DNA from: a virus
IMG/VR virus record: IMGVR_UViG_3300031697_000015
Span: 1 to 34,102 of that record
Length of the DNA: 34,102 bases
Strand: one strand, 5' to 3'
Positions 5,467-10,918 of the stretch are shown piece after piece (the stretch's first letter is position 1; the number at the start of each line of letters is the position of its first letter). Made by a program: the position numbers and the translations under genes. Below the pieces are notes generated by a model that was given only the letters and a program-made list of their open reading frames with translations, did not search any database and had not been told where the DNA came from.

Positions 5467-5498
5467 AAAGCCGGCACTCACATGAGTTGCCGGTTTTT
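5467..5498 (+). terminator. Intrinsic terminator
   Basis: CCGGCA (5471-5476) pairs with TGCCGG (5488-5493), with an inner CTCA/TGAG and a bulged T, followed by TTTTT. It closes the first early transcription unit. Confidence 0.75.
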
Positions 5499-5513
5499 CT
5501 GTTGTGCTATAAT
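5487..5513 (+). promoter_or_regulatory. Extended -10 promoter, leaderless
   Basis: TGCTATAAT at 5505-5513 is an extended -10 (TGnTATAAT). TTGCCG at 5487-5492 is a poor -35 with a 15-nt spacer, and it overlaps the terminator stem. The ATG at 5520 comes 6 nt after the -10, at the expected transcription start. Confidence 0.55.
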
Positions 5514-5519
5514 TTTTGG

Positions 5520-5696
5520 ATGTCAAGATGCACTGTATGTCAAAAACCAGCGATTAGTGAAAATGATCTCCGAGCCGAAGTAATGGTTTGCCAGGTTCAC
5601 TACAAAATTTTAAAAAAGGGAGAGCTTGAAAACGATAAGTATTTCAGGGTCCGTAGCCAGGTAGGAAAGTTATCCACTATACAAAATTTGTCGTAA
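5520..5696 (+). CDS. Small zinc-finger protein (58 aa), leaderless
   Basis: 58 residues. CTVC at residues 4-7 and CQVH at about 24-27 form a C2-x-C/H type zinc site, so this is a small treble-clef or ribbon-like protein. A basic C-terminal half (KILKKGELENDKYFRVRSQ) suggests nucleic-acid binding. The start was set at the ATG 6 nt after the extended -10; an upstream ATG at 5487 lies within the terminator hairpin and is rejected. The next promoter (5688) begins inside its last codons. The specific role is unknown. Confidence 0.6.
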   Translation: MSRCTVCQKPAISENDLRAEVMVCQVHYKILKKGELENDKYFRVRSQVGKLSTIQNLS

Positions 5697-5716
5697 GACT
5701 GACACGTGTGTACAAT
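5688..5716 (+). promoter_or_regulatory. Promoter for the structured RNA and replication operon
   Basis: TTGTCG (5688-5693), 17-nt spacer, TACAAT (5711-5716), with the proximal TGAC at 5700-5703. GTTATCCACT lies just upstream (5668-5677) and is one base from a DnaA box. Transcription from about 5724 would give a ~190-nt leader before the primase-helicase gene. Confidence 0.65.
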
Positions 5717-5737: not shown

Positions 5738-5886
5738 TTTATTGACGGGGGAGAGATGGCGTGGGTTCGAGTCCCACCAGTGGCTGCATTAAGCGGGTTC
5801 TGTAGCTCAGTTGGTAGAGCGCTCCCAGGGGTCGGATGAGGTTCGAATCCTCTTCACCGATGGTAGGGGCCTTCCCTGTCAATAAA
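5738..5886 (+). ncRNA. Structured RNA with tRNA-like arms closed by a 16-bp stem
   Basis: TTTATTGAC (5738-5746) pairs perfectly with GTCAATAAA (5878-5886). GGGGGAG (5747-5753) continues with CTTCCCT (5871-5877), using two G-U pairs. Inside are a perfect T-arm hairpin (GTGGG, loop TTCGAGT, CCCAC), a canonical D-arm (GCTCAGTTGGTAGAGC, about 5814-5829), and a second T-arm-like hairpin (GAGG, TTCGAAT, CCTC, about 5838-5855). Neither set has a matching 7-bp acceptor stem or a proper anticodon arm, so these are not ordinary tRNA genes. It lies between a promoter and the primase-helicase gene. Confidence 0.65.
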
Positions 5887-5911: not shown

Positions 5912-8296
5912 ATGCTTGCCACCATAAAATTAAAATTAGATTCTAAACAGAATAAATTCCTATCGTTTTTTAAGAATACACTTTACTGCTACATCCACGA
6001 TTCAAACGATTCTTCACCAATTATTCATAGTGAGGTACTCCAGTTAGATCGCCAGCAGCAGGGATACGGAATTTTTTTTACAGTCAACGGTTTCACTGGA
6101 GGCCGTCGAACTAATGACACACTGACAAACATCAATGCTTTTTTTGCTGACATTGATTACCCGGACAAGATCAACCGGACCCCCGAAGCAGTGAAGCAAT
6201 ATAAGCAAGAGCTTTTAATGGAAATGATGGAAGATGAGTTGCCGATTCCTACTTACGTTATCGAAACTAAAAATGGATTCCACGTGTACTGGATACTCGA
6301 AGCACCAGTGATGCTCAATGAGCTTAATGAAAATCAGCGGGAAGAACTAAAGCTACAGTACCGACAAGTTGAGGAAGCTATTTTAGCCCGGTTCGATGGG
6401 GACCCGGGAGCTAAGGATGCAGCTCGAGTGTTGCGTATTCCTGGAAGCCTTCATCAAAAGGATCCTAATGATCCTTTTACAATAAAAATTACTCATGCCT
6501 CACCAGATGAGTGTATTTACACGTTTGAAGAAGTGCGTGAGGCTTTTCTAAAACAACCAGCAGCTCAAGGTTGGGCACTGGCTGCTAGTGAGAACGCTAT
6601 CAATGATGAAGTGAAACAGGGGATCGAAAAGGAGTACCCAAAATTAGAGCGCGATTCTTACAAAGCACTTTTTAATAATGCACCGGTCCCAGAGGGAATG
6701 AGAAACAAAGCTCTACTGGTTGCGGCTCACGCTGCAAAAGAAGCCGGCTGGGGACTCGAGCAAACATTTTCACATTTCACTGACTATCAAGGACTCTCTC
6801 TCCGGGAGGTCCGGAAGACAGTTCGCAGCGCGTTCGATCATAATTATGATTTTGGATACAACAATGAAGTGATGCAAGCTGTAGTGACTCAAGATGAGCG
6901 GGTGAAACTATCCGAAGTCACTAGTAAAGTGTTATCGAAGTCGACTAAAGAAGAGAGGGCTACCAGTAACAACCAGCAGAAGGAAAAATATGCCACGTAT
7001 GAGTACGTGATTGCTGACCGGTACCCGACACTGAAATACAAAGACCGGGGAGATTTTTATGAGTACTATGATGGGGTATACAAATCACTCCAGGCTGAAG
7101 AGGTTCGATCGATGCTCTTTCGGGAGATGCTCAAGGATGGGCTTACTAACTACCGAACCACCTCGAAGGCTAACGATAAGATTGCCACTTTCAAATCACT
7201 CGATGGCCGAACCTTTAAGCAAGAGGATGAGAACCCGAACCCGAACATCATCAACTTTAAAAATGGGCTACTCGATATCACTACATACCAGCTAACGGCT
7301 CACACACCGAATTACCTCTCCACTTCGCAGATTCCAGTGATGTTTAACCATGAGGCGAGGTGTCCACGCTGGCTGCAATTTATCCAAGAAGTCACCAGTG
7401 ATGATCCTGAACAAGCAAAATTGCTCCAGCAGATAGCCGGCTACTCACTGACAACTGATACTAATTTTGCCAAGGCGTTTATTTTCTTTGGAATGGGAGC
7501 AAACGGTAAATCTATGTTCACTCGGATGCTCGGGAAAATTGTTGGCCGAGATTCTGTATCAACACTCAACCTCTCAACCATCACCAGGCAGTTCGGATTA
7601 ACCGGGCTTATCGGTAAAAAAGTAAACTTTATTGATGAGATCTCCGGGAATTATTTTGAGTCGAACGTCATTAAGGGATTGATCTCTGGTGAAAGAATAT
7701 CAGCTGAAGTGAAGTACCGGCCGGAGCCGCTGGAGTTCACTCCGACCGTGAAATTAATTTTCTCAGTCAACGAACTACCAAAGATTAATGACACAACGCC
7801 AGGACTCTATCGACGATTCACGATTGTGCCGTTCGATCGTTCCTTCGAAGCCAAGCCGGACCTCCAGCTGGAGCAAAAGCTCACAGATGAGTTGCCAGGG
7901 ATTCTTAACTGGGCAGTTGAAGGACTCAAGATGTTACGCGCCGATGGTCGGTTCAACGAGACGGAGCGAAACTTTGAAGTGATGCGCTCATTCAAGAGCG
8001 ACAACTCTCCGGTGGTCGAGTTTATCCATTCTTACTACCTGGCACCTCCAGCCGGTGACGAGAGTAAGTATAGTCTCACCGTGAGTGACCTCTATTCTCA
8101 GTACCGTGGCTACTGCTTGGACCATGGCTATAAGCCGAAAGCTATGGCAAACTTCAGCCGGGAAGTGGTACACAACCGAGTCGACGGTTTTAATCTATCG
8201 ATTAGATTGATCGATGGTAAGAAGACTATTTTTGGCCTTCGAAAAGAAGCGTCCCTCGGTGGAGCAAAAGTAATTTATCCAGATCAATATGTATAA
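5912..8296 (+). CDS. Primase-helicase: RepB-type primase domain fused to D5-like SF3 helicase
   Basis: 794 residues. The N-terminal ~210 residues carry an archaeo-eukaryotic-type primase core: FFADIDYP with Asp80/Asp82, ETKNGFHVYWIL with a His, and AARVLRIPGSLHQ, as in RepB-like primases. A central region resembles the D5 N-terminal helicase-associated domain. The SF3 AAA+ core has Walker A GMGANGKS (about 527-534), an acidic Walker B-like NFIDEIS (about 572) and GLYRRFTIVPFDR as the arginine-finger region. The enzyme would unwind the replication fork and prime DNA synthesis. No DNA polymerase is seen in the window. No SD; the ATG follows the structured RNA by 25 nt. It overlaps the next gene by 8 nt. 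Confidence 0.9.
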   Translation: MLATIKLKLDSKQNKFLSFFKNTLYCYIHDSNDSSPIIHSEVLQLDRQQQGYGIFFTVNGFTGGRRTNDTLTNINAFFADIDYPDKINRTPEAVKQYKQELLMEMMEDELPIPTYVIETKNGFHVYWILEAPVMLNELNENQREELKLQYRQVEEAILARFDGDPGAKDAARVLRIPGSLHQKDPNDPFTIKITHASPDECIYTFEEVREAFLKQPAAQGWALAASENAINDEVKQGIEKEYPKLERDSYKALFNNAPVPEGMRNKALLVAAHAAKEAGWGLEQTFSHFTDYQGLSLREVRKTVRSAFDHNYDFGYNNEVMQAVVTQDERVKLSEVTSKVLSKSTKEERATSNNQQKEKYATYEYVIADRYPTLKYKDRGDFYEYYDGVYKSLQAEEVRSMLFREMLKDGLTNYRTTSKANDKIATFKSLDGRTFKQEDENPNPNIINFKNGLLDITTYQLTAHTPNYLSTSQIPVMFNHEARCPRWLQFIQEVTSDDPEQAKLLQQIAGYSLTTDTNFAKAFIFFGMGANGKSMFTRMLGKIVGRDSVSTLNLSTITRQFGLTGLIGKKVNFIDEISGNYFESNVIKGLISGERISAEVKYRPEPLEFTPTVKLIFSVNELPKINDTTPGLYRRFTIVPFDRSFEAKPDLQLEQKLTDELPGILNWAVEGLKMLRADGRFNETERNFEVMRSFKSDNSPVVEFIHSYYLAPPAGDESKYSLTVSDLYSQYRGYCLDHGYKPKAMANFSREVVHNRVDGFNLSIRLIDGKKTIFGLRKEASLGGAKVIYPDQYV

Positions 8297-8690
8297 CCCT
8301 TACGGACAATTAACAACGGATGCTTTGGTAAAAGCTATTCAACGCACAGAGTTGATGCTGCAAAAGCATGAGGCAAAAAAAGAGATACTCCCAACTAAGC
8401 TGAACCGGATCAGAAAAGAGCTGGCTGAAATGAGAGCTTCAGTATTCTACCCACTAAAAGAACTCGACCGGATGGACCCTCAGTTTTTCAAGGTCGGCTA
8501 CCACGTTGAGTTTTATGTTCCTCCCCCTCCAACTGATGTCGATGACTGGGGACCGGACACTACAATACCTCCAAGAGCCGGGGTAGTGACGAGGTACATC
8601 GAAGACAAGGTGGTGGTCCAGTTGGAAGGAGACGATTACGAAGTAATGATTGAGCCACGGTATTTAAAAATTAAATTTATACGACCATGA
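8289..8690 (+). CDS. Hypothetical protein with coiled-coil N-terminus and beta C-terminus (133 aa)
   Basis: Not recognised. Residues about 10-55 form an amphipathic, coiled-coil-like helix pair (TDALVKAIQRTELML; KLNRIRKELAEMRASV). The second half (about 68-133) has alternating hydrophobic residues and a Pro stretch (VPPPPTDVDDW) that suggest a small SH3-like or beta-barrel domain (AGVVTRYIEDKVVVQLEG). It overlaps the primase-helicase stop by 8 nt and the next start by 4 nt, so the three genes are probably co-translated. A replisome-accessory role is inferred only from position. Confidence 0.55.
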   Translation: MYNPYGQLTTDALVKAIQRTELMLQKHEAKKEILPTKLNRIRKELAEMRASVFYPLKELDRMDPQFFKVGYHVEFYVPPPPTDVDDWGPDTTIPPRAGVVTRYIEDKVVVQLEGDDYEVMIEPRYLKIKFIRP

Positions 8691-9439: not shown

Positions 9440-9836
9440 GAACTTGGCTGTTCCTTCCCCGCGGTTCTCGATTCTAGCTGGCAAGCCTGGATCGAGCCGG
9501 GGAAGGAGCAGCGAAAGCTCCAATGGGATAAAGTGCCGGTTCCGGCTGTGGCGGAATAGGTAAAGTGTATGTAGGAGGCTATCGGGGCGCATAACGGAAA
9601 CACAGTTATGAAAAAGTTTCCACCCTACGAAGTTAGCCAAAACACCAGTATAAAAAATACGCAACCTCACACTGGTACTGCAAGGTGACTATACGAGTAC
9701 AACAAAACGCACATAAGTTATTAAGTTATCACGGGGCGACACCCGCATCTCATTCAAATCCTTGCCAGCCGGAACCGGTACTTTATTCAAAGGTCGAAAC
9801 AAATTTAATAGACAGATAAGAAAATCTACGAAGTAT
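9439..9836 (+). ncRNA. Folded intergenic region with hairpin chain and pseudoknot-like element
   Basis: No gene is visible over about 400 bp. Successive hairpins are GGAAC/GTTCC (9439-9454), CCTTCCCCG with CGGGGAAGG plus CTCGAT with ATCGAG (9453-9506), GGAGC with GCTCC (9505-9521), and GCCGG with CCGGC (9535-9546). CATAAC (9590-9595) can pair with GTTATG (9605-9610), while GGAAAC (9596-9601) can pair with GTTTCC (9616-9621). These pairings cross, giving an H-type pseudoknot with an A5 loop, or else two competing hairpins. Further stems are ACCAGT/ACTGGT and CGGG/CCCG. Some of these stems are mutually exclusive. A weak promoter-like TGAC plus TACAAC lies at 9686-9703. The remainder, to 9836, is AT-rich leader. 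Confidence 0.45.
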
Positions 9837-10366: not shown

Positions 10367-10876
10367 ATGCCCCCACAAAACCGAAGACCCCAAGAAAATC
10401 CACAGGACAACTGGCCTGTCACCAAAGATGACAAGGTACAGATCCAGGCGCTCGGCCGAGACTTGCACAAATTCCTCAACAACCATTTCAATGGCAAAGA
10501 GGCTGTGCACGTCAAGATTGTAGTTGGAGCCTTCAACTACATTATGGATCTTCAAAGTCAGCGCACTAAGCTCGTTGGTGATGATTTCCTCATCGCTCAG
10601 AGGTCAGTAGCAGCTGCTAAGTTGGAAGACAAGATCGAGGAACCTTTCGATGTTGAACCAGATCTACCTGAACCAACTATCGAAGAACGCCGAGCTCAGC
10701 TCCAAGCGCAACTCGCTGAATTGGACACTGAAGAAGTTGGCGAAGAAGTCGCTGATGCTTCACCAGCTCCAGCAGATTCAGTCGCTCCTTCCCCAGAAGT
10801 GGTTCCTGTAACTACTCCTGAAGCAGCCGTTGCAACAGCAACAGCTCCTACTACACCAGCAACACCAGCTGGTTAA
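10367..10876 (+). CDS. Hypothetical protein with Ala/Pro/Thr/Glu-rich tail (169 aa)
   Basis: Not recognised. Residues about 15-75 look helical and globular (DDKVQIQALGRDLHKFLNN; VKIVVGAFNYIMDLQ). From about 95 an acidic coiled segment (ERRAQLQAQLAELDTEE) leads into a disordered tail made of Ala, Pro, Thr, Val and Glu. The tail style matches the 43-residue acidic protein (13562) and the SSB-like protein (13769), so a common use of flexible tails is seen in this phage. The stop codon lies in the 5' strand of a tRNA-like minihelix. No SD (TTTATCATG). Confidence 0.55.
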   Translation: MPPQNRRPQENPQDNWPVTKDDKVQIQALGRDLHKFLNNHFNGKEAVHVKIVVGAFNYIMDLQSQRTKLVGDDFLIAQRSVAAAKLEDKIEEPFDVEPDLPEPTIEERRAQLQAQLAELDTEEVGEEVADASPAPADSVAPSPEVVPVTTPEAAVATATAPTTPATPAG

Positions 10877-10918
10877 GCTGAATGGTTCAAGCCGGCGGTT
10901 CGAATCCCCCGGCAGCTT
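10875..10918 (+). ncRNA. tRNA-minihelix-like hairpin
   Basis: AAGCTG (10875-10880) pairs with CAGCTT (10913-10918). After an 11-nt bulge on the 5' side, CCGGCGG (10892-10898) pairs with CCCCCGG (10906-10912), with one C-C mismatch, around the loop TTCGAAT. The loop and the join to an acceptor-like stem mimic the top half of a tRNA. No T-tract follows; a promoter starts 10 nt later. Confidence 0.55.

What the first reader, a model, noticed from the sequence alone, without database searches (positions are those of the whole stretch)
5738..5886. Promoter-driven RNA with tRNA-like D- and T-arms inside a 16-bp stem, upstream of the primase-helicase
The closing stem is perfect for 9 bp and continues for 7 more. 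Within it are one canonical D-arm and two T-arm-like hairpins with TTCGAGT and TTCGAAT loops, but no matching acceptor or anticodon arm. This is not a tRNA gene, a terminator or a known riboswitch that I recognise. It could be a tRNA mimic that engages host tRNA enzymes, a decoy for tRNA-targeting defences, a replication-priming RNA, or a leader regulating the primase.
Basis: partly seen in the sequence, partly recalled or inferred. Interest (0 to 1): 0.75.

Follow-up and report, generated by a model that had tools for sequence, protein, structure and literature searches.

The report
Phage RNA imitating a transfer RNA
This phage carries a small non-coding RNA that imitates the core of a transfer RNA in scrambled (circularly permuted) order on a long stem, built like a bacterial Y RNA but without the usual Ro60-protein docking signal, so it looks like a new variant of a known type of tRNA-mimicking RNA.

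Summary
The stem, D-arm and two T-arms at 5738-5886 are real, and the stem is far from chance. T-arm, acceptor-like hairpin, D-arm is a circularly permuted tRNA core, the architecture of bacterial Y RNAs (Rfam YrlA, 30.8 bits, below cut-off). A covariance model built without the window scores it 54.1 bits. That lies inside the range of phage Y RNAs encoded beside Ro60 (36-69 bits), and above every verified tandem-tRNA junction (at most 48.7). The module covaries strongly across 18 RNAs. However, the Ro60-binding motif of phage Y RNAs is absent, no Ro60 gene lies in this incomplete record, and a second T-arm is added. An unrelated phage contig (L006) repeats the design with a different stem sequence. 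A relative with a 64%-identical primase lacks the RNA, so it is accessory rather than a needed primase leader. Most likely it is a Ro60-independent, YrlA-like tRNA mimic acting in trans on host tRNA-recognising enzymes. The structure is well supported; the function is inferred. New variant of a known kind.

The parts
5688..5716 (+). candidate sigma-70-type promoter, TTGTCG-17-TACAAT
   Evidence: not above chance in number of matches, but identical in the only close relative
5738..5753 (+). 5' strand of the basal stem (TTTATTGACGGGGGAG)
   Evidence: in the relative L002 a G-U pair of the stem becomes G-C
5749..5753 (+). alternative 5' strand of the anticodon-stem equivalent (GGGAG), competing with the inner part of the basal stem
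   Evidence: 5/5 pairs, variable region 7 nt; about 10 kcal/mol less favourable than the MFE
5761..5777 (+). T-arm 1 (GTGGG TTCGAGT CCCAC)
5778..5802 (+). acceptor-like hairpin (CAGTGGC ... GGTTCTG), closed by a loop because the tRNA order is permuted
5805..5820 (+). D-arm (GCTC AGTTGGTA GAGC)
5822..5826 (+). alternative 3' strand of the anticodon-stem equivalent (CTCCC)
5831..5861 (+). second hairpin: short helix GTCGG/CCGAT carrying T-arm 2 (GAGG TTCGAAT CCTC, 5838-5852)
   Evidence: probability about 0.6
5871..5886 (+). 3' strand of the basal stem (CTTCCCTGTCAATAAA)
5912..8296 (+). downstream gene: primase-helicase (RepB-primase-like weak match, D5_N, DUF5906); probably on the same transcript, not part of the RNA

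Best explanation
The sequence encodes a trans-acting, non-coding tRNA-mimic RNA of about 149 nt with the YrlA (bacterial Y RNA) architecture. A long 5'/3' basal stem carries a circularly permuted tRNA core (T-arm, acceptor hairpin, D-arm), with an additional T-arm hairpin. The RNA is probably made from a promoter upstream of the primase gene and cut out of, or read together with, the primase transcript (inferred). The D- and T-loops are expected to dock into a tRNA-like elbow that host tRNA-recognising proteins bind, such as tRNA-modifying enzymes, PNPase or tRNA-cutting nucleases (inferred from YrlA). Because the Ro60-binding motif is absent, the most likely use is as a Ro60-independent competitor or scaffold that diverts such proteins during infection (inferred). 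Shown here: structure, order, family-level covariation, recurrence, accessory status, absence of the Ro60 motif. Not shown: expression, processing, any binding partner.
For: Rfam YrlA is the best family match (30.8 bits, E 3.8e-5 on 221 nt). The permuted module is supported across 18 RNAs: 96.2% of cells paired, against 69% shuffled and 42-52% slid; 106 double-change cells against 34; covariation score 0.715 against 0.19. A covariance model built without the window gives it 54.1 bits. Phage Y RNAs beside Ro60 score 36-69 and verified tandem-tRNA junctions at most 48.7. Basal stem beyond chance. The close relative keeps the whole RNA with 3 changes, one a G-U to G-C in the stem, while other intergenic DNA nearby is only 35-55% alike. 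An unrelated phage contig, L006, has the same plan with a different basal-stem sequence. Positive control: L134, found by the same T-D-T approach, carries such an RNA directly before a Ro60 (TROVE) gene. A relative's primase has no such RNA. The published YrlA description matches: 90-150 nt, large stem pairing the 5' and 3' ends, and a tRNA-like domain with D, T and acceptor arms (PMC8394870).
Against: The Rfam score is below the family cut-off (30.8 against 69), and that model also rings at E 0.1 in 11 of 14 control genomes, presumably on tandem tRNAs. The margin over the best tandem-tRNA junction with the held-out model is only about 5 bits. The acceptor hairpin has 5 of 7 pairs, and the anticodon-stem equivalent is not favoured thermodynamically. 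Only two nearly identical copies of this exact RNA exist in the collections searched, so the window's own basal stem has a single covarying change. No expression data. No partner protein identified.
Confidence: 0.6

Rival explanations
1. Cis-acting leader of the primase mRNA: the structure lies in the 5' UTR and controls stability or translation of the primase message, possibly by sensing a tRNA-binding protein.
For: It lies directly between a candidate promoter and the primase start with no terminator after it, and the segment is as conserved as the coding sequence that follows.
Against: L147 (primase 64% identical) has the same upstream neighbour and a promoter-like sequence but no RNA. The same design in L006 precedes a tmRNA-like element, not a primase.
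Confidence: 0.15
2. A canonical Y RNA that binds Ro60, with the Ro60 gene in the host or in the missing part of this phage genome.
For: Architecture and tRNA-like module match phage Y RNAs next to Ro60. The contig is incomplete: the relative continues into the large terminase, and no portal or capsid gene was recognised among the proteins tested.
Against: The conserved CCCGGTGCGCAG ... CTTGATCTCGGG motif of Ro60-linked phage Y RNAs is absent. A full-length model of those RNAs gives held-out members 93-119 bits end to end, but matches the window only over the module, at 31.6 bits. No TROVE domain in this record, in the close relative or in L147, even at E 10.
Confidence: 0.12
3. Decayed tandem tRNA genes: T-arm of one pseudogene, D-arm and T-arm of the next, with no function.
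For: In tandem tRNAs a T-arm is naturally followed by a D-arm, and such junctions score up to 48.7 bits with the model. The loops are canonical tRNA sequences.
Against: The enclosing basal stem is beyond chance. Near-perfect conservation of a non-coding segment. Acceptor and anticodon-equivalent pairing (5/7 and 5/5) is not reached together in any of 8 true tandem junctions measured. The same architecture recurs elsewhere with different sequence.
Confidence: 0.08
4. A replication primer or origin RNA used to start phage DNA synthesis next to the primase.
For: Adjacent to the primase; one DnaA-box-like TTATCCACT at 5670.
Against: Six such sites with at most one mismatch occur on the + strand of the window. 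The RNA is missing before the primase of L147 and L006 shows no primase next to its RNA.
Confidence: 0.04

Closest known systems
Bacterial Y RNA, YrlA (Rfam RF02553)
   Same: T-arm, acceptor hairpin and D-arm in permuted order; long 5'/3' basal stem; 90-150 nt size class
   Different: No Ro60-binding motif, no Ro60 gene in the record, an extra T-arm hairpin, score below Rfam's cut-off
Phage Y RNAs encoded just before Ro60 (L134, L229-L246; Streptomyces and Gordonia phages carry related Ro60 proteins)
   Same: Same module and a long basal stem; comparable scores with the held-out module model
   Different: They share CCCGGTGCGCAG / CTTGATCTCGGG in the stem region; the window has none of it and matches their full-length model only in the module
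Tandem permuted tRNA-like RNAs before SPFH/Band_7 genes in Bacteroidota (L115-L117, L120-L130)
   Same: T - acceptor hairpin - D, then a second T, with no intact tRNA called there
   Different: Chromosomal, beside SPFH genes and (in the locus checked by profile, L126) RlaP and RtcB; second module better formed, often followed by an anticodon-like hairpin; no comparable basal stem found
RNA of the viral contig L006
   Same: Promoter-like TATAAT, long basal stem, T1 - hairpin - D1 - T2, ARAGORN-negative
   Different: Complete second acceptor hairpin and D-arm; followed by a tmRNA-like and another tRNA-like element

Membership tests
Bacterial Y RNA / YrlA | permuted tRNA-like module: T-arm, acceptor arm, D-arm | tested here: met
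   (54.1 bits with a held-out model)
Bacterial Y RNA / YrlA | long basal stem joining 5' and 3' ends, total 90-150 nt | tested here: met
   about 149 nt; the feature as described in PMC8394870
Bacterial Y RNA / YrlA | Rfam RF02553 gathering score (69 bits) | tested here: not met
   30.8 bits; the Ro60-linked phage Y RNA in L134 also fails it at 36.7
Bacterial Y RNA / YrlA | conserved Ro60-binding sequence in the basal stem region, as seen in Ro60-linked phage Y RNAs | tested here: not met
   motif absent; full-length model matches only the module
Bacterial Y RNA / YrlA | encoded near a Ro60 (TROVE) gene | tested here: inconclusive
   no TROVE in the window, the relative or L147, but the records are incomplete
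Bacterial Y RNA / YrlA | binds Ro60/Rsr and tethers PNPase | not testable with these tools
   needs biochemistry
tRNA gene | acceptor, D, anticodon and T arms in order, recognised by ARAGORN and Rfam tRNA | tested here: not met
   ARAGORN 0 genes; Rfam tRNA 22.2 bits against cut-off 29
Permuted functional tRNA | 7-bp acceptor and 5-bp anticodon stems with an anticodon loop formed after processing | tested here: not met
   acceptor 5 of 7 pairs; no anticodon loop, and a segment with another T-arm lies at that point; anticodon-stem equivalent costs 10 kcal/mol
tmRNA | tRNA-like domain plus tag reading frame | tested here: not met
   only the T-arm matches, 11.3 bits against cut-off 47

The most novel reading that the evidence does not exclude
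The window RNA, the L006 RNA and the Bacteroidota RNAs beside SPFH genes belong to a Ro60-independent class of multi-headed tRNA mimics that act as decoys or sensors for enzymes that cut or repair tRNA, used by hosts at RNA-repair loci and by phages against them.
Probability: 0.22. Interest if true: 0.85.

Novelty: new variant of a known kind. Interest (0 to 1): 0.57.

Why it matters
Bacterial Y RNAs are studied as partners of Ro60. A phage RNA that keeps the tRNA-mimicking head but has lost, or never had, the Ro60 dock would separate the two functions. It would give a natural tool to ask what the mimic alone does during infection, when tRNAs are a common target of host defence. The recurrence of related double-headed mimics at Bacteroidota SPFH loci, with RNA-repair genes beside them in the locus checked, makes the suggested link between Y-like RNAs and tRNA damage directly testable outside the Ro60 system.

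Tried and rejected
DNA similarity searches of phages and plasmids gave only a tRNA hit or nothing. Rfam YrlA scores alone were rejected as proof, because the model also rings in most control genomes; a held-out model calibrated on verified tandem-tRNA junctions was used instead. A first attempt to enforce the anticodon-stem equivalent in folding did not take effect and was redone. Degenerate viral scans mostly returned true tRNAs, or tRNA-like elements without an anticodon arm and with long acceptor stems, which are a different thing. No RtcB in these phage records. The idea that the basal stem is a transposon inverted repeat was considered: no target duplication was seen, and the segment is kept almost unchanged in the relative. 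Host: nearly all ORFs lack a Shine-Dalgarno sequence, which would fit Bacteroidota among others, but this was not proved.

Full report
What is there. The window is a 34,102-base virus record. Between a small conserved ORF (5487-5696) and the primase-helicase gene (5912-8296; D5_N and DUF5906) lies a segment that folds to -63.6 kcal/mol, z -3.5. Its ends form a 15-16-bp stem. The best enclosing stem scores 41.5, against a shuffle maximum of 28.5. Inside, T-arm 1 (5761-5777) and the D-arm (5805-5820) form with probability about 0.99, and a second T-arm (5838-5852) with about 0.6. ARAGORN and Rfam gathering thresholds return nothing.

The order is the key. The T-arm comes first, then a hairpin (5778-5802), then the D-arm. 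This is a tRNA whose acceptor end is closed by a loop and whose chain is opened at the anticodon: a circular permutation. With relaxed thresholds Rfam's best match is YrlA, the bacterial Y RNA (30.8 bits, cut-off 69). The published description of YrlA fits: 90-150 nt, a large stem between the 5' and 3' ends, and a tRNA-like domain with D, T and acceptor arms that is modified by DusA and TruB and binds PNPase (PMC8394870). Phages with Ro60 proteins and suspected Y RNAs are on record (PMC12282133, PMC7765460, PMC7824862).

A warning and how it was met. Two ordinary tRNAs in a row also give T-arm then D-arm, and the YrlA model rings in 11 of 14 control genomes. So I built a covariance model of the module from 15 other RNAs, leaving out the window and its close relative. 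It scores the window 54.1 bits. Ro60-linked phage Y RNAs score 36-69 (L134, at 69, was in the training set; the others were not), and junctions of two ARAGORN-verified tRNAs at most 48.7. The margin is real but modest. In 8 verified tandem junctions none combined acceptor pairing of 5 of 7 with a 5-bp anticodon-stem equivalent, as the window does. That 5-bp stem, however, competes with the basal stem and costs about 10 kcal/mol, so I do not claim that it forms.

Relatives. The close relative (IMGVR_UViG_3300012270_000010, primase 98% identical) keeps the RNA with three changes, one turning a G-U pair of the basal stem into G-C. Other intergenic DNA nearby is only 35-55% alike, while the RNA is 96-100% alike. 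A scan for T-D-T with too little room for an anticodon arm found an unrelated viral contig, L006, with the same plan and a wholly different basal-stem sequence (GGTGGTGCATTGTACGGG/CCCGTACAGTGCACC), again with no tRNA called. There the RNA is followed by a tmRNA-like element (39.8 bits). A looser scan found L134, where the RNA sits directly before a Ro60 gene; this serves as a positive control for the approach.

Bacterial relatives. The same kind of pattern in 84,980 bacterial and archaeal genomes gave 16 loci, 14 of them Bacteroidota. All 14 of those (L115-L117, L120-L130) carry a T - acceptor hairpin - D module. A protein with a Band_7/SPFH domain lies downstream in the 13 for which the neighbouring ORF was seen and scanned (L128 ends before that gene), and in the locus checked by profile (L126) RlaP and RtcB RNA-repair genes follow. 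Eighteen modules aligned (window, close relative, L006, L134 and 14 Bacteroidota) give 96.2% paired cells against 69.2% in shuffles and 42-52% when slid, 106 double-change cells against 34, and a covariation score of 0.715 against 0.19. The permuted tRNA core is therefore a real, selected structure at family level.

Is it a Y RNA? Twenty-one viral Ro60 loci were fetched. In most of those with enough upstream sequence, one or two Y RNAs precede the Ro60 gene and share a CCCGGTGCGCAG ... CTTGATCTCGGG signature. A full-length model of them scores held-out members 93-119 bits end to end, but the window only 31.6 and L006 37.7, both over the module alone. No TROVE domain is present in the window, its relative or L147 even at E 10, though the records are incomplete: the relative continues into the large terminase and no portal or capsid was recognised among the proteins tested here. 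So it works like the tRNA-mimicking half of a Y RNA, but I do not file it as a Ro60-type Y RNA.

What it probably does. A relative whose primase is 64% identical (L147) has the same upstream neighbour and a promoter-like sequence but no RNA before the primase, and no YrlA match anywhere in its record. The RNA is therefore accessory, which argues against a needed leader or primer. By analogy with YrlA the mimic should be bound by host proteins that recognise the tRNA elbow. For Salmonella YrlA, Hughes and colleagues suggested competitive inhibition of an anticodon nuclease as one possibility (PMC7790460). For the phage RNA I favour a competitor or scaffold acting on host tRNA-recognising proteins, with the exact target unknown. 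Expression, ends, processing and partners are not shown.

The same genome holds two further tRNA-like places (9526-9788 and 10873-10917), listed under things noticed, which would fit a phage that uses several such mimics.

Noticed in passing
window 9526-9788: A 263-nt segment closed by a stem of more than 20 bp (z -4.3), with a tRNA-Leu-type D-arm-like start (TGGCGGAATAGGTAAAG) and a TTCAAATC loop near its end. It is absent at the same place in the close relative L002. No Rfam family.
   Followed up: partly
window 10873-10917: Acceptor-plus-T-arm minihelix (TAAGCTG ... GCCGGCGG TTCGAAT CCCCCGGC AGCTTA) just after an ORF end, also present with changes in the relative (L002 about 9459-9504). Its fold energy is not better than shuffles.
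   Followed up: partly
L115-L117, L120-L130 (Bacteroidota genomes): Permuted tRNA-like modules (T-acceptor-D, followed by a second T, often with a second acceptor hairpin, D-arm and anticodon-like hairpin with varying anticodons) lie upstream of a Band_7/SPFH gene in the 13 loci where the neighbour is held, with RlaP and RtcB in L126. Possibly an undescribed RNA-repair-associated RNA.
   Followed up: partly
L006 about 3930-3370 (- strand): Apparent ncRNA operon in a phage contig: double-headed tRNA mimic, tmRNA-like RNA whose T-loop is not canonical (GGCAGAG), another tRNA-like element, then a terminator-like hairpin.
   Followed up: partly
L088 about 8500-8660: By eye, a tRNA in normal order (acceptor AACTCTA/TAGAGTT) carrying a permuted tRNA-like module (ATGATCC-GCAT-GGATCAT) inside its anticodon region: a tRNA nested in a tRNA. 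66.8 bits with model R1.
   Followed up: no
L104, L112, L013, L017, L082/L008 and others: Many viral contigs hold D-arm plus T-arm elements without a full anticodon arm, closed by acceptor-like stems of about 13-23 bp, and not called as tRNAs.
   Followed up: no
L227, L236, L245: Two successive Y-RNA-like matches upstream of the phage Ro60 gene.
   Followed up: no
window, whole: Almost no ORF has a Shine-Dalgarno sequence, pointing to a host group with leader-independent initiation such as Bacteroidota; not proved.
   Followed up: partly
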